Assembly (NCBI RefSeq): GCF_014211915.1
Contig: NZ_CP060039.1
Coordinates: forward strand, 1,302,001 to 1,366,000
From: Burkholderia cenocepacia
Lineage (GTDB): Bacteria > Pseudomonadota > Gammaproteobacteria > Burkholderiales > Burkholderiaceae
Direction: 5' to 3'
Length of the DNA stretch: 64,000 nucleotides
How positions within the stretch are numbered: position 1 is the first letter of the stretch; each line of letters opens with the position of its first letter. A program made the position numbers and the translations under genes. The notes under the pieces were generated by a model. That model was not told the origin of the DNA, ran no database searches, and saw nothing but the letters and a program-made list of their open reading frames with translations. Shown piece after piece: positions 4,052 to 21,355 of the stretch.

Positions 4052-4109
4052 TGGAGCGGCCCCACGTATCTGAGGACACGAGGACTCTCTTAAAATAAGG
4101 GATAGTCTT

Positions 4110-4511
4110 GTGCCTATCAGTAAGCCTAGTCATTACGTGGAAAGCATCGAAATTCTGACCGAGCCGGAGCGCCGTCGTCGGCGCACGGCGCAAGAAAAAA
4201 TCGCCATCGTGCAGGAAACATTGGAGCCGGGAGCGTCGGTGTCGGCCGTTGCACGTCGGCACGGCGTCAACGCCAACCAAGTGTTCGGCTGGCGCAAGCA
4301 ATACCAGGAAGGCAGTCTGGCGGCGGTGAAGGCAGGCGAAACCGTTGTGCCGGCATCTGAGCTGGCCGCCGCCATCAAGGAAATCAAGGAACTGCAACGG
4401 CTACTTGGGAAGAAGACGCTGGAGGTCGAAATCCTGAAAGAAGCCGTGGAATGGGGCCGTTCAAAAAACCTGATTGCGCGCTCGCCCTTGCTGCCGGGGG
4501 ACGACCGATGA
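4110..4511 (+). CDS. IS2-group transposase OrfA
   Basis: 133 residues starting at GTG 4110. It has a helix-turn-helix that binds the terminal repeats ([20 protein letters not shown] and the following [18 protein letters not shown]) and a C-terminal leucine-zipper-like segment ([24 protein letters not shown] is spread over residues ~90-115). Its stop overlaps the orfB ATG as ATGA at 4508-4511. Near the end the frame contains TCA AAA AAC, where -1 slippage would give the OrfAB fusion transposase. In IS2, OrfA alone represses the element's promoter. Confidence 0.93.
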
Positions 4512-5344
4512 AGACGGTCTGCGAAGTTCTCGGCGTGGCGCGCTCTGCCGTGGCGGTGAAGCGAGCTCGCTCGTCCGACTGGCGCGATGGTCGCCGTGCC
4601 CGCGTGACCAACGATGCCGGGCTGGTCGAGGAGATTCAGGCCCATGTGGCGCACCTTCCCACCTACGGCTACCGCCGTGTCTGGGCGCTGCTGCGCCGCA
4701 GTCGGGAGCAGAGCGGTGCGCCGTGCATCAACGTCAAGCGCGTGTATCGGGTCATGCGGGAGCATCAGTTGCTGCTGCGCCGCCCTGGCGTGCGGCGAGA
4801 TAAGCGGCGACATGACGGTCGCGTTGCGGTGGACCGCAGCAACACCCGCTGGTGCTCCGATGGCTTCGAGTTTCGGTGCGACGATGGTACGCCGCTGCGC
4901 GTGACGTTTGCGCTGGACTGCTGCGACCGCGAGGCGATTAGCTGGGCAGCAACGACCGGCGGGCATAGCGGTGATGTGGTGCGCGACGTGATGCTGGCCG
5001 CCGTCGAACAGCGCTTCGGCACCACGCAGGCCGCGCAGCCCATTGAATGGCTGACGGACAACGGCTCGGCCTACATCGACCACCGCACGCGCAGCTTCGC
5101 TCGCGAACTGGGTCTTGAGCCGCTGACCACACCGGTCCGTTCGCCGCAGAGCAATGGCATGGCGGAATCGTTCGTGAAGACCATGAAGGACAATTACGTC
5201 GCCTATATGGACAAGTCTGACGCACCAACAGCGCTCTCGCGTCTGGCTATCGCGTTTGAACACTACAATGAGCGCCACCCGCACAAAGCCCTGAAATACC
5301 GCTCGCCTCGCGAGTTCAGGCGTAATGCGGTGTCATCAACCTAA
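4508..5344 (+). CDS. IS2-group transposase OrfB, DDE integrase domain
   Basis: 278 residues from ATG 4508; the same frame is open from 4451, as needed for an OrfAB fusion after slippage at 4463-4469. It holds an HTH_21-like N-terminal part ([14 protein letters not shown]) and an rve integrase core with the three acidic residues in [19 protein letters not shown] and [12 protein letters not shown], the last two about 35 residues apart as in IS3 transposases. It ends [12 protein letters not shown], the typical C-terminal signature. No stop or missing catalytic residue is seen. Confidence 0.95.
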
Positions 5345-5381
5345 CGGTGTCCGCGTGTCCTGAGTTACAGGGGCAACTCCA

Positions 5382-5386
5382 CCGGA
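5382..5386. repeat. Right target-site duplication CCGGA of the IS
   Basis: Exact copy of 4047-4051; it encodes part of the N-V-R codons of wzm on the minus strand. Confidence 0.95.
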
Positions 5387-5699: not shown

Positions 5700-5709
5700 G
5701 ATCTGCGGC

Positions 5710-6939
5710 TTAGTCGTGATGCTCGCGCACGCCCGCGAGCAACAGGCTTAACACGCCCCAAGTAATCATCCCGAGTGCAAATATTTCGAAAATCGACTTC
5801 AGGCGCTTGGGTTCGATAGCTACGTCTGGCGTATTCGGCTGCACCAGGCGTTCCAGGTAAAGTTGCTTTTTCTCGGCCTCGGCCTTTGCATTCTCGAGAT
5901 TGGTGAGCGCGGATGCAAGTTGCTTCTCCGCAAATTGAGCATCGAGCTGAAGTCGTGCGTAGCGTGCCGCTTTGTCCGAAAGCGAGTTTTTGCTTCCCAC
6001 CACGCCGCCTGTTGTGCCTTCGATCTGCTTCTGCAGGGCTGCGATGTTCGTACGGAGAACCGGAATCTGCGGATTTTTGGGTGCAATGGCTTCCAGTTGC
6101 AGCAATTGTGCTTGTGCCGCGTACAACTGGCTTTGCAGCCCGGCGACCTGCTGAAGTTGCAGTGCGGATTGTCTTTCGGGATCGAAGACAGCGTAGCTGT
6201 TGCGGTACGCTGCGAGCGAAGCTGCCGTGTCCTTCGATTTGGCCGCTGCGATGTCGACTTGCTGCTGGGCAAAGCTTACAGTATCGTTCGCTGCCCGCTG
6301 GTTCATGCGGTTGATCAGGCGCTCGCTCAGCGCCAGCAAGCTCTCGTTGATCTGGGCGGCATCCTTGGCCGTGTATGCGCGTACCTGGAGCGTCGTGATT
6401 GACGATGCAGGGTCGAATTCAACGCTGACAACGTGCCTTCCATAATATTTCCAGAGGGCTTCAAAGCTGTCGTCGAAAAGCCGGTGGAAGCGACTGACAA
6501 AATCACCGCGATTGCCATACGCGTCAGCGATGTAGTTGCCTTGGTTTAGCTCGACCAACGCATCGCGAGACTGAATGTAGTCGATGACAGGGTAGGTGTC
6601 GTCCTGTGCCTTGGAAAAACCGGTGCCCTGGAGCAGCATGCCGACAAGACTAGTTTGGCTTTGTCGTTGCGGGCTGCGTACCACGAATCGGGACTCCGAT
6701 ACGTATATATCGGACGCAACGAGTCCGTAATAGAGAGTGGCGATGGCGGTGGGCAATACCACGGTGAGCGCGAAGAGCCTATTCATTCCGCGTAGTCGCT
6801 CGAGCAGGCTTTTCTTCACGCGTGCCGACGATGATGTCGTGATGCCAGTTGCGTTTTCCAACTTATTTCCATCCAGACTGATTGTCGTGTGGTAGATCTG
6901 CAGTACGAGGCAGATCGACAGAGGGGCATCGATGAGCAC
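5710..6939 (-). CDS. wcbD: Capsule polysaccharide export inner-membrane protein (KpsE/CtrB/BexC type)
   Basis: 409 residues with the polysaccharide co-polymerase layout: an N-terminal membrane helix (LFALTVVLPTAIATLYYGLV, ~residues 55-75), a periplasmic domain starting VASDIYVSESRFVVRSP, a long coiled coil (residues ~215-370, QQQVDIAAAKSKDTAA and Ala/Gln/Leu-rich repeats) and a C-terminal membrane helix (IFEIFALGMITWGVLSLLLAG). It would bridge the ABC transporter to the outer-membrane export channel. The start is GTG 6939 behind AGGAGG; the two-base spacing is short, so the exact start is uncertain. First gene of the leftward arm, before wzm. The symbol follows the B. pseudomallei KpsE-like gene and is a family-level call. 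Confidence 0.88.
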   Translation of the reverse strand: MLIDAPLSICLVLQIYHTTISLDGNKLENATGITTSSSARVKKSLLERLRGMNRLFALTVVLPTAIATLYYGLVASDIYVSESRFVVRSPQRQSQTSLVGMLLQGTGFSKAQDDTYPVIDYIQSRDALVELNQGNYIADAYGNRGDFVSRFHRLFDDSFEALWKYYGRHVVSVEFDPASSITTLQVRAYTAKDAAQINESLLALSERLINRMNQRAANDTVSFAQQQVDIAAAKSKDTAASLAAYRNSYAVFDPERQSALQLQQVAGLQSQLYAAQAQLLQLEAIAPKNPQIPVLRTNIAALQKQIEGTTGGVVGSKNSLSDKAARYARLQLDAQFAEKQLASALTNLENAKAEAEKKQLYLERLVQPNTPDVAIEPKRLKSIFEIFALGMITWGVLSLLLAGVREHHD

Positions 6940-7219: not shown

Positions 7220-8425
7220 ATGCCTCGCTCATTTCTTGTGCTGCAAGGCACGGCTTCGCTATTTTTTAGTCGGCTCGCGGATGTGTTGGTCGAGCGGGGT
7301 CATGCGACACATCGCGTTAATTTCTGTGGCGGTGATTGGTTCTACGGTCGGACTCGCAACACGCTCAACTATGCCGGGTGGGTTTCTGGGCTTTCCACGT
7401 GGTATTCCGACGTCATTCGCCGGGAAGGCATCACTGATGTCCTGATGTTCGGTGATTGCCGCGAGGTTCATCGGCACATGCACCCTGTCGCCGAGCAATT
7501 CGGTCTGCGCGTGCACGTCTTTGAAGAGGGCTACGTGCGCCCGCACTGGATCACGCTTGAAAGCCACGGCGTGAACGGTCGCTCGCGAATGCCGGTGGAT
7601 CCGAGGGAATACACGAGGCTGCGCGATGTCATCCCAGCGGCGGAACCCGGCGTGCCGACCGGCTACAACCTGTATGAGCGGGTGTTTCATGACATCACGT
7701 ATCGGGTCGCCAATGCGTTGCTAATGTGGCGGTTTCCGCTTTATCGCAGCCATCGGCCAAAGAACGGCGTGTTCGAGTACACGGGGCTCGCGGTTCGGGC
7801 GCTGCTGCAAGGCAAGCATCGCCGCCAGGCCGAAGCCATCGTGCGCGAATTGCTCGACTCCGGCCGGCCGTATTACCTGTTCCCGCTTCAGCTGAACTCC
7901 GATGCGCAGATCGTCGTGCATTCGCCATTCGAAGGGGTACGCGATGCGATTGACTACGTCCTGCGCTCGTTCGCTCGGCACGCGCCGCACGACGCGACCC
8001 TGCTGATCAAGAATCACCCGCTCGACACTGGCATGATCGAATATCACCGCTTCGCGATGTCGATTGCGCGCGAGGCTGGTATCGGAGATCGGGTCCGTTT
8101 CATCAACTCGGGTCACTTGCCGACACTGCTCGAGCATGCGCGCGGCGTGGTCGTGGTGAACAGCACGGTCGGGCTTTCGGCTTTGCACCACGAGCGCCCG
8201 CTAGTGGCGCTCGGGACCGCTATTTATAATATGCCGGGCTTGACTTGGCAGGGGAAACTCGACGATTTCTGGTATGGCGGCGAACTGCCGGACATGTATC
8301 TCTATCACGCCTTCCTGGACTACGTGATGCATCACACGCAAATCAACGGCGATTTCTACACCCGAACCGGCATCGAGATGGCGGTCGCGGGGGCGGTCGA
8401 GCGCCTGGACCGCGCGGATGCCTGA
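7220..8425 (+). CDS. wcbO: Capsule export/Kdo transferase protein, KpsS/LipB type
   Basis: 401 residues of the capsule polysaccharide synthesis family that includes KpsS. It opens with the family start RSFLVLQGTASLFFSRLADVL. Further diagnostic pieces are LMFGDCREVHR, HVFEEGYVRPHWITLE, QLNSDAQIVVHSPF and LLIKNHPLDTGMIEY with the closing VVVVNSTVGLSALHHERPLVALG. In E. coli, KpsS adds the first beta-Kdo to lyso-phosphatidylglycerol, the base of the capsule lipid anchor, in the cytoplasm. No membrane segment is seen. The end overlaps wcbP by eight bases. There is no good ribosome binding site before ATG 7220, but the conserved N-terminus supports this start. Symbol by homology to the B. pseudomallei capsule cluster. 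Confidence 0.85.
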   Translation: MPRSFLVLQGTASLFFSRLADVLVERGHATHRVNFCGGDWFYGRTRNTLNYAGWVSGLSTWYSDVIRREGITDVLMFGDCREVHRHMHPVAEQFGLRVHVFEEGYVRPHWITLESHGVNGRSRMPVDPREYTRLRDVIPAAEPGVPTGYNLYERVFHDITYRVANALLMWRFPLYRSHRPKNGVFEYTGLAVRALLQGKHRRQAEAIVRELLDSGRPYYLFPLQLNSDAQIVVHSPFEGVRDAIDYVLRSFARHAPHDATLLIKNHPLDTGMIEYHRFAMSIAREAGIGDRVRFINSGHLPTLLEHARGVVVVNSTVGLSALHHERPLVALGTAIYNMPGLTWQGKLDDFWYGGELPDMYLYHAFLDYVMHHTQINGDFYTRTGIEMAVAGAVERLDRADA

Positions 8426-9209
8426 TCAACTGCCGCGAAACATCGTTATCACCGGCGCGAGTGCCGGTCTCGGCCGCGCGCTTGCGCTTGCCTATGCACA
8501 GCCCGGCACGACGCTGGGGATCGTCGGCCGCAATTTCTCGGAGGTCGAGAAAACGGCGGCGACTTGCCGCGCGCACGGCGCCATGGTCGAAACGGGTGTC
8601 ATAGACGTGCGCGATGCCGCGTCGACTGCCGCCTGGCTAACCGACTTCGACACCCTCCACCCGATCGACCTGCTGATCGCGAACGCCGGTGTGGCCAGTA
8701 CGATCGCCGATGCGAGCGACTGGGAAGACCTGGAACGCACGGCTCGCGTCATCGACACGAATCTCTACGGCGCATTGCATACGGTCTTGCCGGTTATCGG
8801 CCGGATGCGGGAGCGCAGGCGCGGCCGTATCGCGATGGTCAGTTCGATCGCCGCACTGCGCGGCATGGCGATCTCGCCAGCCTATTGCGCGAGCAAGGCC
8901 GCGATCAAGGCCTACGGCGATTCCGTGCGCCCGTTGCTGGCGCGCGACGGCGTGGGCGTCACGATCATCCTGCCCGGCTTCGTGAAGACGGCGATGAGCG
9001 ACGTGTTCCCCGGCGACAAGCCGTTCCTCTGGAGTGCCGAGCGTTCGGCCGAGTACATCCGCCGGCGGCTCGACGCAGGCCGAAGCGAGATCGCGTTCCC
9101 CGGGTTGCTCGCATTCGGCATGCGCCTCCTGCCGCTGCTGCCCGCGACGCTGGCCGACGCGATCCTCGACCGCCTGTCCTATCTTCCGTCGAAGGACCGG
9201 GTCAATTGA
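8418..9209 (+). CDS. wcbP: Short-chain dehydrogenase/reductase of the capsule lipid module
   Basis: 263 residues. Classical SDR features: cofactor loop TGASAGLGRALAL, NAG motif LLIANAGVAS, catalytic Ser in MVSSIAALRG and the Y-x3-K pair in YCASKAAIKAYG, then ILPGFVKTAMSD. The last ~40 residues include a hydrophobic segment (GLLAFGMRLLPLLPATLADA) that could attach it to the membrane, as in 3-ketosphinganine reductases. It overlaps wcbO by eight bases and wcbQ by four. Inferred job: reduction of a keto group on the lipid made by WcbR/WcbT; a nucleotide-sugar or polysaccharide substrate cannot be excluded. Confidence 0.85.
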   Translation: MPDQLPRNIVITGASAGLGRALALAYAQPGTTLGIVGRNFSEVEKTAATCRAHGAMVETGVIDVRDAASTAAWLTDFDTLHPIDLLIANAGVASTIADASDWEDLERTARVIDTNLYGALHTVLPVIGRMRERRRGRIAMVSSIAALRGMAISPAYCASKAAIKAYGDSVRPLLARDGVGVTIILPGFVKTAMSDVFPGDKPFLWSAERSAEYIRRRLDAGRSEIAFPGLLAFGMRLLPLLPATLADAILDRLSYLPSKDRVN

Positions 9210-10737
9210 GCGCGCGTCTTGCCGTGACGCTGACGGCCACCATTGCGGTGTCGTTTGCGGTCGATGCGATCGCCGTCCCGCGCGCGCCGCTGCGGCGCCC
9301 GCTGCTGTCGTCAGTGCTTCATATTGTTGCCGTACTCTTCGTATTCGACCTCGTGTTCGCCGCCACCTGCCGGCCGCTGTTTTCGGCCTGCGCGTCGCTT
9401 GCGCTCGTCGGTCTCGTCGCCGCAGTCAGCAACGCGAAGTACGAGTCGTTGCGCGAGCCGTTCGTATTTACCGATCTGAGCCTGTTCAGCCAGTTGTTTT
9501 CGCATCCCCGTCTTTATTTGCCATTCCTCAGCGTCGGCAAGGTCGTCGCGATCGGCGTCGGCATTCTGCTCGTGATCGCGGGTTTCGTCGTCGAGCGACC
9601 GGTGCATCGGGGGGCGTCGTGATCGCGTGGTTCGCGGTAGCGTTGCCGCTCGTGCTCGCGGTGCCCATCGCGGCGCGTTTGCCGTTGACGCTCGATCCCG
9701 ATGCCGACCAGCGTCGCCACGGCTTTTTTGCCGTGTTCGTGGCTTATCTGCTCAACGGGCTGCGCCCCGCGACGTTCCGGAAATTTCGCGAGGTCGTGGC
9801 GGCGGGGCCGTTCGCAACCGGCAAGTCGCATCGGCGCCCGGACGTGATCCTGATCCAGAGCGAATCGTTTTTCGATGCGCGCCGGCTCGGTCGCGCGGTC
9901 GAGCCGAGGCTTTTCGCGCGCTTCGACGAAGCGCGCCGCGAGGCCATCTGGCATGGCGAGATGACGGTGCCGGCATGGGGCGCCAACACCATGCGAACGG
10001 AATTCGCGGTGCTGACCGGCATGGAATCTTTTTCGCTTGGATATGCGCGCTTTTATCCTTACGTATTTGTAAGAAATAAAATCGCGTCGCTTGCCTCTTG
10101 GTTTAACCGTTGCGGCTACGATACAGTCGCGATTCATCCGTATTACGCCGATTTCTTCGGGCGGGACCGGGTATTTCCGCTGCTGGGTTTTACGCGCTTT
10201 CTTGATATCCGCGATTTTGCATCGGCGTCCCGTGCCGGCCCGTACGTGGCGGACGCCGCGGTATCCGAATCGATCATCGCCGAACTCGAAGCGGCGGGCG
10301 ACGACCATCCGCGCTTCATTTTCGCGATGACAATGGAAAACCACGGCCCGCTGCACCTCGAACAGGTTTTGCCTGGAGAATCGTCTTCGCGGCATACTCT
10401 TGGCGAAGACCCGTCCTGGCGCGACCTGACAGCCTACCTGCGACACATTGAAAATGCAGACGCAATGATTGGGCGCCTGCTCGACCATTTGCGCACCAGC
10501 GATCGTGAAACAGTCGTTTGTTTTTACGGCGATCACGTTCCCGCTCTGCCTCACGTATTCGATAAGCTGGGCGTTTCTCCGCAAACCAGCGACTACTTCA
10601 TTTGGCGAAATTACGGCACGGACACGCCCGAATGCCGGAATCTGGCGGCCGAAGAGCTCGGTTCGGTACTTTTGCATGTGGTACAAGATGACGGACATCG
10701 CGCGGAACAACCGCACGCATCCGAGAAAGCGACATAA
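9206..10737 (+). pseudogene. wcbQ: Sulfatase-fold membrane protein of the capsule locus, apparent frameshift
   Basis: Coding signal switches frame at 9609-9622. The first frame (TTG 9206 to TGA 9620-9622, 138 residues) encodes several membrane helices (AVTLTATIAVSFAVDAIAV, LSSVLHIVAVLFVFDLVF, VGKVVAIGVGILLVIAGF). The second continues as VIAWFAVALPLVLAVPI, a further helix, then an alkaline-phosphatase/LTA-synthase-like domain: VILIQSESFFDARRL, PAWGANTMRTEF, LTGMESFSLG, AMTMENHG and VCFYGDHVPALP. One extra G in the G6 run at 9609-9614 would make one 510-residue protein with the normal topology of this family. As it stands, a GTG at 9619 overlapping the stop could restart translation, so a split two-chain protein is possible. 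Predicted role is transfer of a phospho-group (phosphoglycerol or phosphoethanolamine type) in the periplasm. Confidence 0.75.
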
Positions 10738-10740
10738 AAG

Positions 10741-13700
10741 ATGAATAGTAAGATTGCAATAATTGGGGTGGCTTGTCGGTTTCCCGGGAGCGCGAACAAT
10801 CTTGGCGACTTCTGGCAACTGCTGCGCGACGAACGCGACGCAGTGACCGAAATCCCCGCTGACCGCTTCGGTACCGATTTCTACCAGCACCCGTCCAAAC
10901 GCGAACCGGGCAAGAGCTATACGTTCGCGGCCGGCGTGCTCGACAACGTCGCCGGCTTCGACGCCGCGTTCTTCGGCATTTCGCCGCGCGAAGCGGCCCA
11001 GATGGACCCTCAGCAGCGCCTGCTGCTCGAGCTCGCGTGGGAAGCATTCGAAGACGCCGGCGTGCGCCCGGCCGACATGCGCGGCAGCAACTGCGGCGTC
11101 TTCGTCGGCGCGGCCAGCATGGATTACGGCAACCGCAACATGGACGATCTGAACGTGATCGATCCGTATTCGGCGACCGGCAATACGCTGAGCATCGCGT
11201 CGAACCGCGTGTCCTACCTGTTCGACCTGCACGGCCCGAGCATGACGGTCGATACCGCCTGTTCGTCGTCGCTCGTCGCTCTCCATCAGGCCGTCAAGGC
11301 ACTGCAGTCCGGCGAGGCCGACGTGGCGCTCGCGGGCGGCGTCAACCTGCTGCTGCACCCGTTCGGCTTCGTCAGCTTCTCGAAGGCGTCGATGCTGTCG
11401 CCGCGCGGTCGTTGCCGCGCATTCGACGCGACCGGCGACGGCTACGTGCGCTCGGAAGGCGGCGCGTTCGTGCTGCTCAAGCCGCTCGATCGCGCGCTGG
11501 CCGACGGCGATACGATCCATGCGGTGATCGCCGGTTCCGGCGTGAACTCGGTCGGCCACTCGCCGGGCGGGATCAGCGTGCCGGGCGCGGCCGCGCAGGC
11601 TTCGCTGCTGCGCAGCGTGTACGCGCGCGCCGGCATCGATCCGCGGTCGCTCGCCTATCTCGAGGCGCACGGCACCGGCACGGCGGTCGGCGATCCGATC
11701 GAGGCGCGTGCGCTGATCGACGTCGTGTCGGGCGAGCGCCCGGCCGATCGTCCGCTGCTGATCGGTTCGGTGAAGACCAACATCGGCCACCTCGAAACGG
11801 CATCCGGCATGGCCGGCCTGCTGAAGGCCGTGCTGTGCCTCAAGCATCGCGCGGTGCCGCGCTCGCTGCACTTCGTCACGCCCAATCCCGGGATCGATTT
11901 CGACGGCGGGCGTTTGCGCGTCGTCGATCGCTACATGCCGCTCGACGCGGGCGACGCGCCGCTGACGGTCGGCGTCAACTCGTTCGGCTTCGGCGGAACG
12001 AACGCCCACGTCGTGCTGACCGAGGCGCCGGTCGCAAACGACGTGTCGCCAGCAGCGCCCGAGCCGACTCGAGCGCAACCGTCCCCGCTCGCGCTGACCG
12101 CGCGCAGTGCGAATGCGCTCGCGGCACTCGCGGGCCGCTATCTGGCCATGCTCGACGACGGCGGCGACTGGCAGGCGCTTGCCGCGGCCGCCGCGCGTCG
12201 GCGCCAGTGGCTCGAGCATCGCGCGATCGTCGCGCCGGCCGACGTGGCCGAAGGCCGTGCGGCGCTTGCGGCACTGGCCCAGCCGGCACAGGACGGGCTG
12301 CCGGCCTGCGTGGCGGCCGGCCAGGCGCCCGCCGACGCATTGCGTACCGCGCTCGTGTTCTCGGGCAACGGTTGCCAGTGGGTCGGAATGGGCAACGAAC
12401 TCTATGCGGAGAACGCGGTTTTCCGGGCGGCGCTCGACGAAGTCGACGCACTATGGCGCGCGGACGGCAGCCCGCCGCTCGTCGACGTGATGCGCGGCGG
12501 CCCGGGCACGACATGGCTGGCCGGCGCGGGTGCCGAATGGCTCGCCGCGACCGAGAACGCGCAGCCGCTGCTGTTCGCGATCCAGGTCGGCATGATTCGC
12601 GTGATCGACGCGCGAGGCATGCGTTACGACGCGGCGATCGGCCACAGCGTCGGTGAAATCGCCGCGGCGTGGGTGACGGGCGCGCTGTCGCTCGCCGACG
12701 CGGTGCGCGTGATCAAGATCCGCAGCCGCGCGCAGGCGATGACGCGCGGCAGCGGCCGGATGGCGGCCGTCGGCATCGGCGAGGCAGCCGCGCGCGAGCT
12801 GATCGCGCGCCATGGGCTTGCGCGCCGGGTCGAGGTGGCCGGCATCAACAGTCCCGATGCGGTGACGCTCGCCGGCGAGCTGCAGGGCTTGCAGGCGCTG
12901 GAGGCAGCGCTGCGCGGCAGCGGCAAGTTCTTCCAGATGCTCGATCTCGACTATGCGTTCCACAGCAGCCACATGGACCGCATCGAGCCGGTCGTGCTGG
13001 CCGAGCTGGCCAGCCTGCGGCCCCAGCCGGGCAACGGCAGGTTCGTGTCGACGGTGACCGGCGGCGCGCTCGCGGGCAACGCACTCGATGCGCGCTACTG
13101 GTGGCGCAATATCCGCGAACCGGTGCGCTTCGGCGACGGCATCGCGTATCTGATCGAGCAGGGCGTCAGGCTGTTCATCGAAGTCTCGCCGCATTCGATC
13201 CTGCGCACGTACGTGAAGCAGGCGTTGACGGCCGCCGGCGTGACCGGCGCGGTGCTGCCGACGCTCAAGCGCGATCACGGCAGCGCGGCGACGCTGCGGC
13301 AAGCGATTCTCGCGGCGATCGCGCACGGCGCGAGCGTCGATCCCGACCGCTTTGCGCCGGGCGAATCGCGTGCGGCATTGCCGTCGTATCCGTGGCAGCG
13401 CGACCGTTTCTGGCTCACGCCGACCGTCGAAGGCTACGGTCTCGTCAATCGGCGCCGCGAGCATCCGCTGCTCGGCTATCGGCTGCACGAACATGCATTC
13501 GGCTGGGAAAACCAGCTCGATCCGGCGAAGCTGCCGATGCTGGCCGATCACGTCGTCGACGGCGGCGTGGCGTTCCCGGGGCCGGCTACGTGGAAATGGC
13601 GCTCGCCGCGGCGCGCACCTTCTTCGATACGCCGGATGCGGCGCTCGAAAACGTCGAGATCCGCACGCCGGTCGTGTTCCAGCCGCAGCAGGCGAAGCTG

Positions 13701-16700
13701 TTCCGGCTCGTGATCGAGCCGCGCACCGCGACGTTTACGATCGAGACGCGCGACCGGATGTCTGACGGCGCATGGACGCTGAACGTGACGGGACGGATGC
13801 TCGAAAGCGGCAACGCGCTCGGCGCCGCGAGCATCGTGCCGGCCGCGACGCTTGAACGCCTGCTCGCGCTGCCGGCCGCCGACGGCGACACGCTGTATGC
13901 GAACACGGCAGCCATCGGCCTCCACTACGGGCCGGCGTTCCGCTGGGTTCGCACCGTGCGGGTCGCCGCGGCCGAGGACGCCGCGCTGGCCGACGTCGCC
14001 GCGCCGGCCGCGTGCGGCGATGCGCGGGCGCTATCCGCGTATCTGCTGCATCCGGCGTTGATGGACAGCGGGTTTCATCCGCTGTTCGCGCTGCTGGCGG
14101 CGCAGGCGCGTGATGGCGAGCATCCGGCCTACGTGCCGGTGCAGATCGGCCGGGTCGACTATTTGCGCGGCGACGCGGTCGCCCGCGTGCTCGCCCGGGT
14201 CGACCGGCGCAGCCCGCATTCGATCGTCGCGCAGTTCGAATTCCTCGACGCGCAGGGCGCGATCGTCGCGCGGCTCGGCGGCTGCCGGTTCCGGCGCGTG
14301 GACCTCGTCGGCCGCCGGCAGAATCTGCCTTCGCGTTTCGTCTACCGCCTCGAAGAGATGCCGTTGCCGAACGACGTCGACGCGGCCGCGTTGCCGGCAC
14401 CCGACGCGCTGCTCGCGCAAGCGGTCGCGCGCGTCGACGCCGCGGAGCTCGACGGCCGTCGGACGCAGCATTTGACCGAGATCCTGCCGCTGCTCGACGT
14501 GCTGGCCAGCCTGTACGTGCTGCGCGCGTTCGATGCGCTCGGCGTATTCGCCGGCACGTGGCAGCCCGCACCGGAGCGCGCGGCGCTCGCTACACGCCTG
14601 GCCGACATGCTCGTCGAGGACGGGCTGGCCGCGCGTGACGGCGCGCGTCTCGTCCGCGACGACGCGGCGTGCGCGGCGCTGCCGCCGCTCGACGATCTGT
14701 GGCGCGGGCTGCTGGCCGAATCGCCGGGGCACGTGGCCGAACTGACGCTGCTCGCGCATTGCGGCGCGGCGCTGCCCGACGTGCTGAGCGGCGCGAAGGA
14801 CGGCGCACGCTGGCTGTCGCCGACCGGGCACAGCCTGGTCGAGCAGTTGCTTGCCGCATCGCCGACCTGGCAGCACGTGCATGCGCTGCTGGCGGCCGGC
14901 GTCGAGCAGGCGGTCGATGCGTGGCAGCCGGCGCGCCGGCTGCGCGTGCTCGAACTGGGCGCGACGGACGGTGACGTGCTGCAAACGCTCGGCATGCATC
15001 TCGCCGCCGCGCGCTGCGATCACACGATCGCCGCGACGGCCGGCCAGCTGGCCGGGTTCGATACGGATGCGGAAGCCGCAGTGCGCACGGTGGCATTGCA
15101 GCCGGGCGAACGGTTGTCGCTGTCCGCCGACGAAGCCGGGCCGTACGACCTGATCGTCGCGAACCGCGCGCTGAGCGGCCGTCCCGATGCGGCCGATGCA
15201 CTGAACGCGATGCGCTCGTGGTTGGCGCCGGGCGGCTTGCTGCTGCTGGCCGAGCCGCGTCGCGGCCGCTTCTCCGACATCGTGTTCGGCGCGCAGCCTG
15301 CGTCGACGGGCGTCGACCTGCCCGCGCCGCTGGCGCCGGCGGATCTCGAGGCGACGCTGGCGCGCGCGGGCTACGTCGACGTCGTGCGGCATGTCGAGCA
15401 GTCGCTCGATCTGGACGGCACGCCGACGTTCGTCATCGCACGCAACCCGGCAAGCGCCGCGGCCGCGCAACGCGGCAGCGACGCGAGCGATCTCGATACG
15501 CTCGCCCGCAGCGAACAATGGCTCGTGATGCACGCACCAGACGCGGCCGGCGGTTTCGGCGGGCAACTGGCCGACGCGCTCGCGCACGCGGGCTACCCGG
15601 CCGATATCGTCGACCTCGCGCATGCGGGCGATGCCATTGCGTCGTTGCCGGCGGGGCAGCCGGCGCATGTCGTGTTCTGCGCGCCGGAAACGCCGCTTGC
15701 CGACACGACGACGGGAGACGACCTGATGGCCGCGCTGCGTCACGGCGTGATCGCGCTGGCGGCGCTCGTGCGCGCGCTCGGCGCGCAACCGAACGCACGC
15801 ACGCGGCTGACCGTCGTCACGCGCGGCGGCGCGCCGTTCGCCGGAGCCGCGCATGCGCATCCGGAACAGGCGACGCTGTGGGGCCTCGGTCGCGTGCTGG
15901 CGAACGAGCATCCCGAACTCGCATGCCGTTTGATCGACGTCGATCGCACGGCGGACGGGATTCCCGATGCGCTGATTCGCGAGCTGACCGGCGCGGCGGT
16001 CGAGGAAGAAGTCGTGTTGAGCGCGCACGGGCGGCTGGTGCCGCGCATGCTGACGGCCGCACAGGCCGCGGCGCGCAGCGACGGCGCGCTTGCACGCGCG
16101 TCGGTGCTGGCGTTCGACGCACCGGGCTCGTTGCGCAATCTCGAATGGTTCGCGCTGCCGGAAAGCGCGCTGGGCGACGACGAGGTGGAAATCGAGCCGG
16201 TTGCCACCGGCCTGAATTTCCGCGACGTGATGTACGCGATGGGGCTCCTGTCCGATGAAGCGGTGGAGACCGGCTTCGCGGGCGCGACGATCGGCATGGA
16301 GCTGTCCGGCCGCGTCGTCCGCGTAGGCCGCGCGGTGACGGCATTCGCACCGGGCGATGCGGTGCTCGGTTTCGCGCCGGCGTCGTTCGCGACGCGTGTC
16401 AGGACACGCGCGCAGGCCATCGCGCAGAAACCCCAGCGCCTGTCGTTCGAGGAAGCGGCGACCGTGCCGACCACGTTCTTCACCGCGTACTACGCGCTCG
16501 TCGAACTCGCGCGGCTGCGCCGCGGCGAGCGCGTGCTGGTGCATGGCGGCGCGGGCGGGGTCGGGATCGCCGCGATCCAGCTCGCGCGCCACTTCGGCGC
16601 GGAAGTGTTCGCGACCGCCGGCAGCGACGAGAAGCGCGAGTTCGTGCGCTTGCTCGGCGCCGATCACGTGCTCGACTCGCGCAGTCTGGCGTTCGCGGAC

Positions 16701-18377
16701 GAGATTCGCGCGATGACGGGCGGCGAGGGCATCGACATCGTGCTGAATTCGCTCGCAGGCGAGGCGATGGTGCGCAGCATCGATACACTGCGTCCGTTCG
16801 GCCGTTTCCTCGAACTCGGCAAGCGCGATTTCTACGAAAACAGTCACATCGGGCTGCGGCCGTTCCGCAACAACATCAGTTATTTCGGCATCGACGCCGA
16901 CCAGTTGATGGGTGCGCTGCCGGAACTGACCGCACGGCTGTTCGGCGACGTGATGGCGCTGTTCGCGGCAGGCGTGCTGCATCCGCTGCCGTACCGCGCG
17001 TTCCCGGCCGAGCGGGCCGAGGATGCGTTCCGCTACATGCAGCAGGCGCGCCAGATCGGCAAGGTGCTCGTGACCTATCCGTCCGGCACGCCCGCGCCGA
17101 CGCGCGGCGTCGCGCGCGCGGCGTCGCTCGGGCTCGATCCGCACGGCGCTTACCTGGTGGTCGGCGGCACGGGCGGCCTGGGCTTCGCGAGCGCGCGCTG
17201 GATGGTCGAGCACGGCGCACGTCGGCTGACGCTGGCGAGCCGTTCCGGCGAACTCGCCGCCGCGGCGCGCGAGGAAGTGGTGCGCTGGCGCGACACGCTC
17301 GGCGTCATCGTCGACGTCGTGTCGTGCGATGTGACCGATGCGGTGGCAGTCGATGCGATGGTTGCCGCGATCGTCCGGCGTGCCCATCCGCTGAAGGGCG
17401 TGCTGCATTCCGCGATGTCGATCGACGACGGTCTCGTGCGCAATCTCGACGATGCGCGGATGACCGCGGTGCTCGCGCCGAAGGTCGCTGGCGCATGGAA
17501 CCTGCATCGCGCGACGCGCGGGCTGCCGCTCGACCTGTTCGTCGTCTATTCGTCGGCGACCACCTATCTCGGCAATCCGGGGCAATCGAACTACGTCGCG
17601 GCCAACGCCTTCCTCGAGGCACTGGTCGAACATCGCCGCGCGGCAGGCTTGCCCGGCACGTTCATGGCCTGGGGGCCGCTCGAGGATGTCGGCTTCCTCG
17701 CACGCAACGCCGATACGCGCGAAGCGTTGCAGTCGCGGATCGGCGGTGCGTCGATCACGTCCGACGAAGCGATGGCCGCGCTCGAGCGCGTGCTGGTGGC
17801 GGGTGCGGCCGGCGAAGCGGTGGTGCGGCTCGACTGGCATGCGGTGGCACGCGGGATGCCGGCCGCGAAGGCGCGCCGGTATGCGCTGCTGCAATCGCAG
17901 GCGAAGGGTGGCGATGCGCGCGACGGCGGTACGCAACTGCGTGAAGAAGTGCTGGCCCTGCCGCGCGACGAAGCCATCGCGCTGGTGGCGCGGACGCTGC
18001 AGGCGCAGATCGCGCGGATTCTGCACATGACGCCCGATCGCATCGCGCTCGACAAGTCGGTGCTCGACATGGGCATGGATTCGCTGATGGGGATGGAGCT
18101 CGGCCTTGCGGTCGAGGAAGCGTTCGAGGTCAAGCTGTCGGTGATGGCGATCGCGGAAGGCGCGTCGGTGACGACGCTGGCCGGTCGCATCGTCGATTCG
18201 ATCGGCGCGTCGGCGGATGCCGGCTGCGATGCCGCGTCGGCGGCCGATGCCGCGCAGGAGGCCGTCGCGGCACTCGCCGCGAAGCATGCGATCGACGGCG
18301 AAGCGCGCGCGATGCTCGATGCGCAGCCGGCGCCGGTTGCCGAGCAGGTATCGCCGTCGCTGGAGGTGGCGCGGTGA
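10741..18377 (+). pseudogene. wcbR: Highly reducing type I polyketide synthase, apparent one-base frameshift
   Basis: One PKS module read in two frames; the break is at GGGG 13578-13581, where a fifth G would restore AFPGAGYVEMALAAA and a 2545-residue protein. Domains in restored numbering: KS 1-430 (Cys174 in DTACSSS, His310 in EAHGTGT, His350 in NIGHLE), AT ~534-830 (Ser636 in GHSVGE), DH from ~900 (His937 in LADHVVDGG), methyltransferase-like ~1245-1570 with a weak SAM loop (VLELGATDGDV), ER ~1785-2115 (VLVHGGAGGVGIAAIQLA), KR ~2135-2320 (VVGGTGGLGFA, YSSATTYLGNPGQSNYVAAN) and ACP ~2415-2485 (Ser2448 in GMDSLMGME). There is no thioesterase, so a partner must release the chain. With the deletion, only KS-AT and part of DH are made, so the product is lost. 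Confidence 0.9.
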
Positions 18378-19291
18378 ACGCGCCGACCGGCTGGGCGACG
18401 CGACAGGGCACGCTGGCGCGTCCGCTGACGATCGACGGGCATGGCTTGCATACGGGGCGCCGGGTCGGCGTCCGGATTCTGCCCGCGTGTCCGAAGGACG
18501 GCGTGACGGGCATCGTGTTCCGTCGGGTCGAGCACGGGCGCACGCTCGCGACGCTGCCCGTCGACCCAGCGCTGCGCCGCGCGCAGCCGCTCTGCACGAT
18601 GCTGCGCAATGCCGACGGCATCGGCGTGCGCACGATCGAGCACCTGCTCGCGTCGCTGCTCGCGTGCGAGATCGATCACGCGATCGTCGAGCTCGACGCG
18701 GAAGAGGTGCCGATCCTCGACGGCAGCGCCACGCCGTGGGTCGACGCGATCCGCGCATGCGGCCGCGTCGCGCTCGATGCGCCGAAACGCTTCATTCGCG
18801 TGCTGCGACCGATCGTCGTCACGGACGGCGACGGCGACCAGCGGCGCGAGATGCGGATCGAGCCGGCGCCGCGTTACGAACTGAGCGTGCGCAACGACCT
18901 GCGCGGCTTCGGCGACATGCACTGGGACGGCGCGCTGACGCCGGCCGCATTCGCGACCGACATCGCGCCGTCGCGCTCGTACGGGCGCGTGAAGTGGGCC
19001 GTGCCGGCGATCGTCGCCGGCTATTTGCGCGGCGTGCCGATCCTGCGCGGCGCGCGGCCGTCGTGCACCGCGTCGATCGTCGGCAATCGCGTGCTGGGCG
19101 GGATGCGGTTGCCGGAGGAATTCGTCAGGCACCGCGTGCTCGATCTCGTCGGCGATCTCGCACTGGCCGGCGCGCCGCTGCTCGCGCGCGTGAGCGCGCT
19201 GCGGCCGAGCCACGAGATGAATTTCCGGCTGGTCGATGCGTTGCTGGCTACGCCCGATGCGTGGCAGTGGGCCGACTTTTCCGACGCATGA
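18374..19291 (+). CDS. wcbS: LpxC-like deacetylase of the capsule locus
   Basis: 305 residues from GTG 18374, overlapping the wcbR stop by four bases. It is a clear homologue of LpxC (UDP-3-O-acyl-GlcNAc deacetylase): the start LTIDGHGLHTGRRVGV, the zinc and catalytic pair in VRTIEHLLASLLACEIDHA, then ELDAEEVPILDGSATPW. The HxxxD zinc motif is kept in RHRVLDLVGDLAL, and a late His is present in PSHEMNFRLVDALL. Zinc and catalytic residues thus look intact. It is not expected to be the lipid A enzyme, because that gene normally sits in the ftsZ-lpxC region. Inferred: removal of an N-acetyl group from a capsule lipid or sugar intermediate. Confidence 0.88.
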   Translation: MNAPTGWATRQGTLARPLTIDGHGLHTGRRVGVRILPACPKDGVTGIVFRRVEHGRTLATLPVDPALRRAQPLCTMLRNADGIGVRTIEHLLASLLACEIDHAIVELDAEEVPILDGSATPWVDAIRACGRVALDAPKRFIRVLRPIVVTDGDGDQRREMRIEPAPRYELSVRNDLRGFGDMHWDGALTPAAFATDIAPSRSYGRVKWAVPAIVAGYLRGVPILRGARPSCTASIVGNRVLGGMRLPEEFVRHRVLDLVGDLALAGAPLLARVSALRPSHEMNFRLVDALLATPDAWQWADFSDA

Positions 19292-19355
19292 CACCACGCC
19301 TTTTAAAAATACGCGGCGTAACATAGCGTCTTTTCGAGATACAGCGAAGGAAGCA

Positions 19356-20684
19356 ATGGCACTGGGAGAGCATCTTCGCCAGCAACTGGCGGCGAAAGCG
19401 CTGAAACGGCAACTGGAGCGCGCGACCGACGCCGCGGCGGCGCCCGGCGTGCCCGGCACGCCGGCTGCGCAGACCGCGTCGGCGCGCAGCCGCTTCGAGT
19501 CGATGCCGCAGTATCAGCAGGTCCGCATCATGCGCGAGATGGGCGAGAAGCTGCGGGTCGAGTCGCCGTTTTTCCGCGTGCACGACGGCGTCGCCGGCGC
19601 GACCACGCAGATCGGCGGCCGCGAATACCTGAACTTCGCCAACTACAACTATCTGGGTCTGGCCGGCGATCCGGCGGTGTCCGCGCGCGCGAAAGCCGCG
19701 ATCGACCGCTACGGCACGTCGGCTTCGGCGAGCCGGATGGTCGCGGGCGAGCGTCCGGTGCAGCGCGCGCTCGAGCGCGCGCTGGCCGCGTTCTACGAGA
19801 CCGACGACTGCGTCGCGTTCGTGAGCGGCCATGCGACCAACGTGACCGTGATCGGCGCGTTGTTCGGCCCCGGCGATCTGGTGGTCCACGACGCGCTCGC
19901 GCACAACAGCATCGTCCAGGGCGCGCAGTTGAGCGGCGCGAAGCGGCTGAGCTTTCCGCACAACGACTGGCAGGCGCTCGACGAGCTGCTGTCGCGCGTG
20001 CACCGCGAATACCGGCACGTGATGATCGCGATCGAAGGGCTGTACAGCATGGACGGCGATTTCCCCGACCTGCAGCGCTTCGTCGACGTGAAGACGCGTC
20101 ACGGGGCATTCCTGCTGGTCGACGAGGCCCATTCGCTCGGCGTGCTCGGCGCGACCGGCAAGGGCATCCGCGAGCATGCCGGCGTCGCGCCCGACCAGGT
20201 CGACATGTGGATGGGCACGATGAGCAAGACGCTGGCCGGCTGCGGCGGTTTCATCGCCGGCTGCCAGCCGCTCGTCGACATGCTGCGCCATCTGGCGCCG
20301 GGCTTCCTGTACAGCGTCGGGCTCGCGCCGACGCTCGCCGAAGCGTCGCTGGCGGCACTCGAACGCCTGCAGGCCGAGCCGGAGCGCGTCGCGCAGTTGC
20401 AGGCGCGCGGGCGACAGTTCCTGACCGAGGCGCGTGCGGCCGGGCTGAATACGGGCACGAGCGCCGGGTATGCGGTCGTGCCGGTGATCACGGGCAGTTC
20501 GCTGAAGGCCGCGCAGTGGGCGAATGCGATGTTCGACGAAGGGATCAACGTGCAGCCGATCTTCTATCCGGCCGTCGAGGAAAAGGCCGCGCGCCTGCGC
20601 TTCTTCATCTGTTCTACGCATGAGCCGGAGCAGATCAGCCGGACGGTGGGCGTGTTGTCGCGCCTCGCGGGGCGCGGCGCGTGA
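19356..20684 (+). CDS. wcbT: PLP-dependent alpha-oxoamine synthase
   Basis: 442 residues behind GAAGGA. It belongs to the alpha-oxoamine synthase family (serine palmitoyltransferase, 8-amino-7-oxononanoate synthase, ALA synthase). Visible landmarks: NYLGLAGDPAVSARAKAA, YGTSASASRMVAGER, FVSGHATNVTVIG, SMDGDFPDL, LVDEAHSLGVLGATGKGI, the PLP lysine in GTMSKTLAGCGGFI, and FLYSVGLAPT. It has an extra ~60-residue N-terminal extension before the fold. These enzymes condense an acyl thioester with an amino acid and release CO2. Next to a PKS with no thioesterase, the natural inference is that it offloads the WcbR chain from the ACP. The amino acid used (Ser, Gly, Ala) cannot be read. Confidence 0.9.
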   Translation: MALGEHLRQQLAAKALKRQLERATDAAAAPGVPGTPAAQTASARSRFESMPQYQQVRIMREMGEKLRVESPFFRVHDGVAGATTQIGGREYLNFANYNYLGLAGDPAVSARAKAAIDRYGTSASASRMVAGERPVQRALERALAAFYETDDCVAFVSGHATNVTVIGALFGPGDLVVHDALAHNSIVQGAQLSGAKRLSFPHNDWQALDELLSRVHREYRHVMIAIEGLYSMDGDFPDLQRFVDVKTRHGAFLLVDEAHSLGVLGATGKGIREHAGVAPDQVDMWMGTMSKTLAGCGGFIAGCQPLVDMLRHLAPGFLYSVGLAPTLAEASLAALERLQAEPERVAQLQARGRQFLTEARAAGLNTGTSAGYAVVPVITGSSLKAAQWANAMFDEGINVQPIFYPAVEEKAARLRFFICSTHEPEQISRTVGVLSRLAGRGA

Positions 20685-21355
20685 CGCAGGCCGCCGCGGT
20701 CGCGCAAGCGGCTCCACGCGTCGGCGAGCCGGTGCGGTTTCGCGCGGCCAGTGCGGATGATGCGGCAGCATGCGCGCCGCTCGTGTTTGCGTCCGGCGTG
20801 GCCGAATTCGGCTTCTTTCTCGGCGAAAGCGACGCGCGCTGCATCGCTTTCCTGCAGCAGGCGTTCCGGTCGCGCCACGGACGCTTCTCGTGGCGCCGGC
20901 ATCGGGTCGCAGTTGGGGACGATGGCGCGGTGCTCGCGGTGATGGCGATTCACGACGGACAGCGGACGACGTTCGACGACGTGCACGTCGTGTGGGCGCT
21001 CGTGCGCTTTTTTGGCGTGCGCCGCACGGTTGGCCAGTTGCTGCGCGGACTGATCCTCGAAACGGAGCTCCCGGCGCCGAAGCGTTCGCAGATCCTCGTC
21101 GCGCATTGCGCGACGGACGAACGTCAGCGCGGCACCGGCGTTTTCAGCGCGCTGTTTCGCGATGCGCTGGATACGGCGGCGTTGCCGGCCGATGGCAGCC
21201 GCGATGTCGTGCTCGACGTGCTGACGCGCAACGTGCGCGCCCGGGCGCTGTACGAACGCTTGGGGTTCGTCGCGCTGCCGCGGCGGCGCGTGCGTTCGCG
21301 CAGGTTGCCGGGTGAGCTTGATTCGATCCGGATGAGGTTCGGGGGCCGCGGCTAA
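20681..21355 (+). CDS. GNAT-family acyltransferase
   Basis: 224 residues from GTG 20681, overlapping the wcbT stop by four bases, so it is the last cistron of the rightward capsule operon. The acetyl-CoA loop region reads HCATDERQRGTGVFSALFRDAL (R/Q-x-x-G-x-G/A type; first part ATDERQRGTGVFSALF), and the fold closes with LDVLTRNVRARALYERLGFVA, a standard GNAT ending. No membrane segments. Inferred substrate is the amino group of the oxoamine-derived lipid or an amino sugar of the capsule. The gene is convergent with cysC. Confidence 0.85.
   Translation: MTQAAAVAQAAPRVGEPVRFRAASADDAAACAPLVFASGVAEFGFFLGESDARCIAFLQQAFRSRHGRFSWRRHRVAVGDDGAVLAVMAIHDGQRTTFDDVHVVWALVRFFGVRRTVGQLLRGLILETELPAPKRSQILVAHCATDERQRGTGVFSALFRDALDTAALPADGSRDVVLDVLTRNVRARALYERLGFVALPRRRVRSRRLPGELDSIRMRFGGRG

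What the first reader, a model, noticed from the sequence alone, without database searches (positions are those of the whole stretch)
8418..21355. PKS, oxoamine synthase, SDR, LpxC-like and GNAT set: a possible sphingoid-like lipid anchor pathway for a capsule
WcbR has no thioesterase. The next condensing enzyme, WcbT, belongs to the family of serine palmitoyltransferase. WcbP is an SDR with a C-terminal hydrophobic patch, as in 3-ketosphinganine reductases. A GNAT acyltransferase, an LpxC-like deacetylase and a phospho-transferring sulfatase-fold protein complete the set. The logic PKS chain, decarboxylative release onto an amino acid, ketoreduction, N-acylation would make a long-chain aminoalcohol lipid to carry or decorate the polysaccharide. 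Released PKS chains being captured by oxoamine synthases is known from fungal sphinganine-like toxins. That it happens in this capsule locus is inference.
Basis: partly seen in the sequence, partly recalled or inferred. Interest (0 to 1): 0.75.

Follow-up and report, generated by a model that had tools for sequence, protein, structure and literature searches.

The report
Sphingolipid-like anchor pathway for a capsule
This capsule gene cluster carries enzymes that probably build a long-chain sphingoid base, attach a phosphoglycerol head group and use the result as the grease-foot holding the sugar coat on the cell, although two of these genes look broken in this particular strain.

Summary
The gene set is real and lies in an ABC-transporter (Kdo-type) capsule locus of a Burkholderia. 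In this strain the PKS and sulfatase-fold genes are each split over two frames and an insertion sequence appears to cut the permease gene, so the pathway is probably dead here; relatives are intact. It does not mention capsules; I find the same gene order in capsule loci of other Pseudomonas, and the same gene set in Sinorhizobium and Burkholderia. The sulfatase-fold protein is closest to phosphoglycerol transferases, and KpsS normally adds Kdo to (lyso-)PG. Best reading: the locus makes phosphoglycerol-sphinganine, a lyso-PG look-alike, as KpsS acceptor and capsule anchor. Co-occurrence, KpsS phylogeny and a small SPT check support it; no chemistry of a capsule terminus was seen. The LpxC-like and GNAT steps are mainly lineage add-ons of unknown role. 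The lipid-carrier idea for the homologous rkp-1 region is already in print.

The parts
7220..8425 (+). WcbO, KpsS-type beta-Kdo transferase of the WcbO branch
   Evidence: PF05159 350 bits; placed with KpsS of PKS-AOS genomes in the tree
8418..9209 (+). WcbP, SDR, presumed 3-ketosphinganine reductase
   Evidence: adh_short; Tyr-x3-Lys visible in the translation; next to KpsS and WcbQ in relatives
9034..10737 (+). WcbQ, sulfatase-fold protein, presumed phosphoglycerol transferase; coding region split over two frames in this strain (this ORF holds the catalytic part)
   Evidence: PF00884; frames by tblastn; relatives closest to GacH/LtaP/LtaS
10741..13713 (+). WcbR first piece: KS, AT, start of DH
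   Evidence: Pfam; frame change
12669..18377 (+). WcbR second piece (frame ORF; the gene's own part begins in the DH domain): DH, methyltransferase remnant, ER, KR, ACP, no TE
   Evidence: Pfam; frame change
18374..19291 (+). WcbS, LpxC-like deacetylase, second LpxC-family gene of the genome
   Evidence: NF009666; His, Asp and Glu positions recalled as the LpxC metal and catalytic site are kept in the alignment to E. coli LpxC; stronger LpxC match elsewhere in the genome
19356..20684 (+). WcbT, alpha-oxoamine synthase of the PKS-partner clade
   Evidence: Pfam/NCBIfam, PDB relatives, trees
20681..21355 (+). GNAT N-acyl/acetyltransferase, role unknown
   Evidence: Pfam, AF2 model and Foldseek
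5710..6939 (-). KpsE-like export protein of the capsule locus
   Evidence: named from the translation, no family search; relatives lie near PKS-AOS in other genomes
2923..3576 (-). Wzt/KpsT-like ABC ATPase
   Evidence: named from the translation, no family search; relatives lie near PKS-AOS in other genomes
4451..5344 (+). IS3-type transposase gene apparently within the ABC permease gene (permease C-terminal part in ORF 3573-4397, minus strand)
   Evidence: translations read by eye

Best explanation
The wcbOPQRT core makes a dedicated sphingoid lipid on which the capsule is started. WcbR, a fully reducing iterative PKS (KS-AT-DH-ER-KR-ACP), builds a long saturated acyl chain on its ACP. WcbT takes the chain off by decarboxylative condensation with an amino acid, most likely L-serine, giving a 3-keto-sphinganine; WcbP reduces it to sphinganine. 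WcbQ transfers phosphoglycerol from phosphatidylglycerol onto the primary alcohol. The product, phosphoglycerol-sphinganine, has one chain and the same head group as lyso-PG. WcbO (KpsS) puts the first beta-Kdo on the glycerol, KpsC extends it, and the capsule is built on it and exported by the ABC transporter. WcbS and the GNAT are mostly Burkholderiaceae add-ons that may adjust an N-acyl group. Shown here: gene content, adjacency, families, co-occurrence, phylogeny. Shown in print for a Pseudomonas set: PKS- and AOS-dependent sphinganines and serine-specific AOS activity; phosphoglycerol-sphinganine assigned there from exact mass. Inferred: that WcbQ is the phosphoglycerol enzyme, that KpsS uses this lipid, that the capsule carries it, and serine as substrate of WcbT. 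In the window strain the locus is broken and probably silent.
For: (1) PMC12134224 (sections 6, 7, 8, 15 and passages): PfSgaA PKS plus PfSgaB AOS are needed for C24-C28 sphinganines; purified PfSgaB uses L-serine, hardly L-alanine or glycine; an SDR is the presumed reductase; 154-Da heavier lipids are most likely phosphoglycerol-sphingolipids; 6101 homologous clusters, dominantly in Burkholderia. (2) A named Pseudomonas plasmid has PKS, AOS, four genes (among them a GNAT and an 'LTA synthase family protein' = WcbQ), SDR, then KpsS and further capsule genes, KpsF, kdsB, kdsA; the PKS-AOS-SDR locus-tag spacing equals that printed for MYb115. (4) In 398 Pseudomonadota genomes strong KpsS occurs in 14 of 17 with the WcbT-type AOS and in 12 of 381 others, p 3e-16; 8 of the 14 within 15 kb. 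(5) A WcbQ relative matches the phosphoglycerol transferase GacH (E 3e-12), LtaP and LtaS by sequence and, as an AF2 model, at Foldseek ranks 1-13; its invariant GANT-RTE motif puts a Thr on GacH's Thr. (6) In a KpsS tree all 41 rows from PKS-AOS genomes lie with 3 control rows on one side of a 100/100 branch, the other 8 controls on the other. (7) Of 12 KpsS genomes without PKS-AOS, the 3 with WcbQ near KpsS all have an SPT-clade enzyme elsewhere; 1 of 9 without WcbQ has (p 0.018, post hoc). (8) S. meliloti has the same set in a row.
Against: No capsule terminus with an aminolipid was seen in any source. PfSgaB's sequence was not held, so its kinship with WcbT rests on clade, genus and gene order. 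The published phosphoglycerol-sphingolipids were assigned from exact mass, treated as free lipids, and did not rise when sphinganine did. Of 39 genomes with a PKS-AOS locus but no KpsS in the held DNA, 9 lack PF05159 altogether; 3 of 17 in the phylum sample lack a strong KpsS. PKS-AOS pairs of a sister clade sit outside recognisable capsule loci (L066, L067, L079, L094, L102). WcbQ pairs with KpsS without PKS-AOS in 3 of 12 control regions. One control on the WcbO side of the KpsS tree (G032) has neither WcbQ nor an SPT. The rows from PKS-AOS genomes for that tree were gathered with a WcbO-built profile, which may favour their grouping. WcbQ's Foldseek TM-scores are moderate (0.42-0.60), and MCR-1/EptA and sulfatases follow from rank 16. 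Charge counts put WcbQ's catalytic domain in the cytoplasm, with one loop undecided, unlike GacH/LtaS as recalled. LpxC-like and GNAT roles stay unexplained. The S. meliloti anchor was called a phospholipid in a 2005 title; that paper was not held.
Confidence: 0.6

Rival explanations
1. The PKS-AOS-SDR set makes a free sphingoid or phosphoglycerol-sphingoid membrane lipid that merely travels with capsule genes, while the capsule itself sits on ordinary acyl lyso-PG.
For: MYb115 sphinganines and PG-sphingolipids were found as free lipids with a host effect; a PKS-AOS sister clade and some WcbT-type loci occur without KpsS.
Against: Strong KpsS co-occurrence, WcbP and WcbQ beside KpsS, KpsS branch that follows lipid type rather than taxonomy, rkp-1 required for capsule secretion in rhizobia (review passage).
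Confidence: 0.18
2. One reading: the sphingoid base is N-acylated by the GNAT (as in a bacterial ceramide synthase) and the capsule hangs on a ceramide-like lipid.
For: GNATs lie beside the AOS in 9 of 80 named loci and weakly similar GNATs beside WcbQ in 6 Pseudomonas loci; that bacterial ceramide synthase is a GNAT is recalled, not tested.
Against: The GNAT model resembles small-molecule acetyltransferases; most named loci lack the window's type; MYb115 lipids are reported as sphinganine and sphinganine plus 154 Da, with no N-acyl group mentioned.
Confidence: 0.08
3. The PKS-AOS product is not a sphingoid but another 2-amino ketone or alcohol (Gly or Ala as amino acid), or WcbQ transfers phosphoethanolamine or another head group.
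For: WcbT is below the cut-offs of the curated SPT families; MCR-1/EptA-type phosphoethanolamine transferases also match WcbQ's model, from rank 16 on.
Against: PfSgaB's strong preference for serine; GacH, LtaP and LtaS are the best sequence and fold matches and no EptA or MCR chain is among the 14 sequence matches up to E 1.
Confidence: 0.09
4. Ordinary decayed locus: whatever the lipid, nothing is made in this strain.
For: Two genes split over two frames and an apparent IS in the permease gene.
Against: Does not compete about function in intact relatives; a frame change could be a sequencing error, though three lesions in one locus make that less likely.
Confidence: 0.05

Closest known systems
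PfSgaAB(C) sphingolipid cluster of Pseudomonas fluorescens MYb115 (PMC12134224)
   Same: Monomodular PKS beside an AOS, with an SDR in the cluster; Burkholderia named there as the main home of homologues
   Different: Published as a secondary-metabolite cluster; 'capsul', 'wcb', 'rkp', 'Kdo', 'polysaccharide' and 'LTA synthase' do not occur in its main text; the phosphoglycerol-adding enzyme is not named in the sections read
rkp-1 region of Sinorhizobium (rkpU, rkpA, rkpG-J)
   Same: PKS, AOS, SDR, WcbQ homologue, KpsS in one run; [quoted passage not shown]
   Different: Chemical nature of the lipid not stated in what I read; no LpxC-like or GNAT among the listed neighbours; SDR and WcbQ matches weaker (130 and 170 bits)
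E. coli/Neisseria ABC-dependent capsules on (lyso-)PG-(Kdo)n
   Same: KpsS, KpsC, Kdo linker, phosphoglycerol head group, ABC export (PMC7694667 passages)
Fungal sphinganine-analogue toxins (fumonisin-type reducing PKS plus AOS)
   Same: Reducing PKS released by an AOS, then an SDR
   Different: Fungal, secreted products; the parallel is partly recalled, partly
GacH / LtaP / LtaS phosphoglycerol transferases
   Same: Best sequence and fold matches, shared Thr, N-terminal membrane helices (the last recalled for LtaS)
   Different: Gram-positive and recalled as facing outward; WcbQ predicted inward-facing

Membership tests
Serine palmitoyltransferase (curated NCBIfam equivalogs) | Score over the curated cut-off | tested here: not met
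   NF047599 286/500, NF047600 276/640, NF047603 226/670 bits
Serine palmitoyltransferase (curated NCBIfam equivalogs) | Position inside the SPT clade | tested here: not met
   Own clade beside the SPT clade
Serine palmitoyltransferase (curated NCBIfam equivalogs) | L-serine plus long acyl thioester activity | not testable with these tools
   Shown in print for PfSgaB only
Alpha-oxoamine synthases | PLP enzyme with family similarity over the whole domain | tested here: met
   Pfam PF00155 and matches to KBL, AONS, SPT, ALAS chains
SgaAB-type PKS/AOS sphingolipid clusters | Monomodular reducing PKS beside AOS, SDR in the cluster | tested here: met
   in the window an LpxC-like gene lies between PKS and AOS and the PKS is frame-split
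SgaAB-type PKS/AOS sphingolipid clusters | Same clade as PfSgaB | not testable with these tools
   PfSgaB sequence not held; Pseudomonas relatives in capsule loci are in the WcbT clade, one of them on a plasmid with matching gene order (that protein was not in the tree)
ABC transporter-dependent Kdo-linked capsule | KpsS, KpsC, ATPase, export protein in one locus | tested here: met
   WcbO in window; KpsC about 16 kb left of the window start; Wzt and KpsE-like ORFs named from translation
ABC transporter-dependent Kdo-linked capsule | (Lyso-)PG-(Kdo)n terminus | not testable with these tools
   No chemistry available
Phosphoglycerol transferases (GacH/LtaP/LtaS) | Best sequence and fold match, shared Thr and metal-site motifs | tested here: met
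   on intact relatives; that the Thr is the nucleophile is recalled
Phosphoglycerol transferases (GacH/LtaP/LtaS) | Catalytic domain outside the membrane | tested here: inconclusive
   Charge counts over 39 homologues suggest the cytoplasm, one loop undecided
rkp-1 lipid-carrier region | PKS-AOS-SDR-WcbQ homologue-KpsS set | tested here: met
   gene names rkpA-J are assigned by me from order and literature, the record bears none
Bacterial ceramide synthase (GNAT) | Long-chain acyl transfer to a sphingoid amine | tested here: inconclusive
   Fold nearest to small-molecule acetyltransferases; no comparison with a ceramide synthase was made

The most novel reading that the evidence does not exclude
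A second widespread class of ABC-dependent capsules (wcb/rkp type, in alpha-, beta- and gammaproteobacteria) is anchored not by scavenged lyso-PG but by a purpose-made sphingoid lyso-PG mimic: a PKS or an SPT supplies the sphingoid base, an inward-facing LtaS-type enzyme (WcbQ) adds phosphoglycerol at the cytoplasmic face, and a specialised KpsS branch starts the Kdo linker on it. The sphingolipids reported from Pseudomonas would then be the capsule anchor precursor.
Probability: 0.42. Interest if true: 0.86.

Novelty: new variant of a known kind. Interest (0 to 1): 0.74.

Why it matters
It would join two literatures: the old question of the lipid carrier of rkp/wcb capsules and the 2025 PKS-derived sphingolipids, whose paper holds none of the words capsul, wcb, rkp or Kdo. 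It would give a specific chemical structure to test for the capsule anchor of many symbionts, environmental bacteria and pathogens, explain why a PKS and an oxoamine synthase sit in capsule loci, give the sulfatase-fold protein a substrate, and say that KpsS enzymes come in two acceptor classes.

Tried and rejected
Rejected: WcbT as ALAS, KBL or BioF (trees; the genome has two other AOS genes, which I named KBL and BioF from their sequence). WcbQ as a true sulfatase: the only sulfatase among 14 sequence matches up to E 1 is at 0.29, though sulfatases share the fold from Foldseek rank 20. C-methylated chain: Pfam sees a weak methyltransferase domain in the window and in two relatives, not in the Pseudomonas PKS, so probably a remnant; not pursued. 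LpxC-like and GNAT as core genes: together in only 9 of 80 named loci. WcbP against solved structures gave only general SDRs among the best 60 shown.

Limits of counts: thresholds were set after seeing tables. One KpsS row (G327, a short fragment) was dropped: 53 collected, 52 in the tree, 11 of them controls. Of the 60 named loci without KpsS in held DNA I asked for 40 and 39 were searched. Many loci are cut by contig ends or by the 10-kb flank. The protein searches list only the best 120. Papers: Kiss 1997, Mueller 2009, Fraysse 2005 and a paper asked for by DOI that I recalled as a 2012 B. pseudomallei capsule study were not held, so the chemistry of the rhizobial anchor is unseen. That no paper links PKS/AOS sphingolipids with a capsule anchor rests only on the searches in an open-licence library.
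Full report
WHAT IS THERE. The window lies in a 7.6-Mb genome whose nearest named relatives are Burkholderia. Between 7220 and 21355 it holds, in order, a KpsS-type Kdo transferase (WcbO), an SDR (WcbP), a sulfatase-fold protein (WcbQ), a type I PKS (WcbR), an LpxC-like protein (WcbS), an alpha-oxoamine synthase (AOS, WcbT) and a GNAT. A KpsC homologue lies about 16 kb left of the window start, with glycosyltransferase, GDP-mannose dehydratase and other genes between. The PKS domains are KS-AT-DH-(weak methyltransferase)-ER-KR-ACP with no thioesterase in the window; three intact relatives also have none.

STATE OF THE LOCUS. It is not: relatives' PKS and WcbQ each match the window in two frames, and a transposase gene seems to sit within the permease gene (read by eye). 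Intact PKS copies exist in relatives, for instance Burkholderia lata. The strain is probably unable to run the pathway; what follows concerns the intact relatives.

THE AOS. WcbT scores below the cut-offs of the curated oxoamine synthase families it matches (BioF 336 of 426; best SPT 286 of 500). In a tree of 72 rows it sits in a clade of 57 rows (100/99) apart from eight SPT rows (100/99), with KBL, BioF and ALAS on the other side of a 99/91 branch. A smaller tree gives the same split at 85/80; both flag long branches. So it works like an SPT but is not filed as one. The WcbT-type enzyme (over 400 bits) occurs in 17 of 398 Pseudomonadota genomes. Hits at 1e-80 or better occur in 25 of 150 genomes of the window's family, two of them of the 44% sister type. 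In a genus whose rows group with named Pseudomonas, 4 of 149 have a hit at 1e-65, three WcbT-type and one of 41% identity.

PKS AND AOS BELONG TOGETHER. Among 80 named loci, the best of 580 relatives found with an alignment of the family, a PKS lies beside the AOS on the same strand in 75. In the window and other Burkholderiaceae the LpxC-like gene lies between. Chain transfer from the PKS to the AOS is the plain reading.

THE PUBLISHED RELATIVE. PMC12134224 (abstract, sections 6-8 and 15, and passages) reports that in P. fluorescens MYb115 a PKS (SgaA) and an AOS (SgaB) are needed for C24-C28 sphinganines; that lipids 154 Da heavier are, from exact mass, most likely phosphoglycerol sphingolipids; that these did not rise with sphinganine; that purified SgaB condenses acyl-CoA with L-serine, hardly with L-alanine or glycine; and that an SDR in the cluster is the presumed ketoreductase. 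It finds 6101 homologous clusters, dominantly in Burkholderia. The words capsul, wcb, rkp, Kdo and polysaccharide do not occur in its main text. On an annotated plasmid of another Pseudomonas the order is PKS, AOS, phytanoyl-CoA dioxygenase, a capsular protein, GNAT, 'LTA synthase family protein', SDR, capsular biosynthesis protein (KpsS), another capsular protein, phosphotransferase, KpsF, kdsB, kdsA. PKS, AOS and SDR have there the same locus-tag spacing (0, 5, 30) as the tags printed for MYb115. Profiles built from the other loci identify the LTA synthase-like gene as WcbQ (496 bits), the SDR as WcbP (394 bits) and the capsular protein as KpsS (594 bits). I infer that the published cluster is a capsule locus; I could not read the MYb115 record itself.

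WcbQ. A Pseudomonas relative of WcbQ matches the phosphoglycerol transferase GacH (E 3e-12), LtaP and LtaS among solved structures. Its AF2 model (mean pLDDT 87, 13 sequences) has five long helices where hydropathy puts five membrane spans and finds GacH, LtaP and LtaS at Foldseek ranks 1-13, with moderate TM-scores; MCR-1/EptA and sulfatases follow. Invariant motifs (QSESFFD and GANT-RTE, each with a residue or two varying, and GDHV) put a threonine on the GacH threonine that I recall as its nucleophile. Charge counts over 39 homologues put the catalytic domain on the cytoplasmic side, one loop being undecided; KpsS works on (lyso-)PG at the cytoplasm-membrane interface (PMC7694667, passages). 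The topology is only a prediction.

LINK WITH KpsS. Strong KpsS (PF05159, E at most 1e-60) is present in 14 of the 17 WcbT-type genomes and in 12 of the other 381 (p 3e-16; with any PF05159 hit 15 of 17 against 65 of 381, p 1e-9). Eight of the 14 pairs lie within 15 kb; in the other six the KpsS is on another contig. Among the 80 named loci, KpsS lies in the held DNA of 20, SDR of 30, WcbQ of 38, and at least one of KpsS, Wzt, KpsE, SDR or WcbQ in 57. Of 39 of the remaining genomes searched whole, 30 hold PF05159 and 9 do not. WcbP and WcbQ lie near KpsS in 6 of 8 further KpsS regions from PKS-AOS genomes; among 12 control regions WcbP is in none at that level (two weak SDR hits) and WcbQ in 3. 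In a KpsS tree of 52 rows all 41 from PKS-AOS genomes fall with 3 of 11 controls on one side of a 100/100 branch and the other 8 controls on the other; a control from the window's own family sides with the 8. Of those 3, two have WcbQ and an SPT, one (G032) neither. The rows from PKS-AOS genomes were gathered with a WcbO-built profile.

AN INDEPENDENT CHECK. The three control genomes with WcbQ near KpsS but no WcbT-type AOS carry an enzyme of the SPT clade elsewhere (618, 610 and 470 bits against the alphaproteobacterial SPT model); of the nine without WcbQ one does (494 bits) (p 0.018). I looked for this only after seeing the three, and the sample is small. It fits the idea that WcbQ needs a sphingoid base from whatever source.

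RHIZOBIA. A named S. meliloti record shows export protein, PKS, AOS, SDR (130 bits to the WcbP profile), a WcbQ homologue (170 bits, not in the distributed gene table) and KpsS (491 bits) in a row, which I take for the rkp-1 region. Papers seen in passages say rkp-1 makes or modifies a lipid carrier or anchor (PMC4881576; PMC3557214) and cite a 2005 paper whose title gives the S. meliloti capsule a phospholipid anchor (PMC5539429). Its chemistry was not available to me and is the nearest existing datum that could support or sink this reading.

ADD-ONS. WcbS keeps in the alignment the positions that I recall as LpxC's metal and catalytic site, and the genome has a stronger LpxC match elsewhere (365 against 224 bits). 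WcbS and GNAT occur in the same 9 of 80 named loci, all Burkholderiaceae. Among the unnamed loci, five more Burkholderiaceae-sample loci have both (L074, L078, L080, L081, L082), L075 has only the LpxC-like gene, L077 only the GNAT, and L084, outside the family, only the LpxC-like gene. A GNAT of weak similarity (15-27 bits) sits beside WcbQ in six Pseudomonas loci. The window GNAT's model (pLDDT 89) resembles small-molecule acetyltransferases. I cannot say what they do; an N-acetyl or N-acyl adjustment of the sphingoid amine is a guess.

CONCLUSION. The better-supported form is a phosphoglycerol-sphinganine, a lyso-PG mimic, made as KpsS acceptor and capsule anchor. Gene-level support is strong; chemical proof at the capsule terminus is missing.

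Noticed in passing
window 3573-5700: IS3-type transposase gene apparently inserted within the ABC permease gene of the capsule locus; with two frame-split genes the locus looks decayed.
   Followed up: partly
L226 17243-18286; also L106, L107, L152, L164, L166, L167, L170: A phytanoyl-CoA dioxygenase-like gene lies in Pseudomonas and Halomonadaceae PKS-AOS loci; a candidate hydroxylase of the sphingoid chain.
   Followed up: no
   Followed up: partly
L066, L067, L079, L094, L102: A sister clade of PKS-AOS pairs (41-47% identity to WcbT) in Burkholderiaceae, Pseudomonas and others, with no KpsS match in the stretches held; related AOS are listed for cyanobacteria and planctomycetes. Product unknown.
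   Followed up: partly
L204, L206, L208: WcbQ near KpsS in capsule loci without PKS-AOS, in genomes that hold an SPT-clade enzyme elsewhere.
   Followed up: yes
L226: A Kdo-type capsule locus with PKS-AOS on a plasmid typed as mobilizable in a poultry-meat Pseudomonas.
   Followed up: no
L136, L153, L132, L124: PKS-AOS near Wzt and KpsE matches in genomes with no PF05159 match (for example Nitrosomonas europaea, Leeia oryzae): the lipid may serve an exporter without KpsS.
   Followed up: partly
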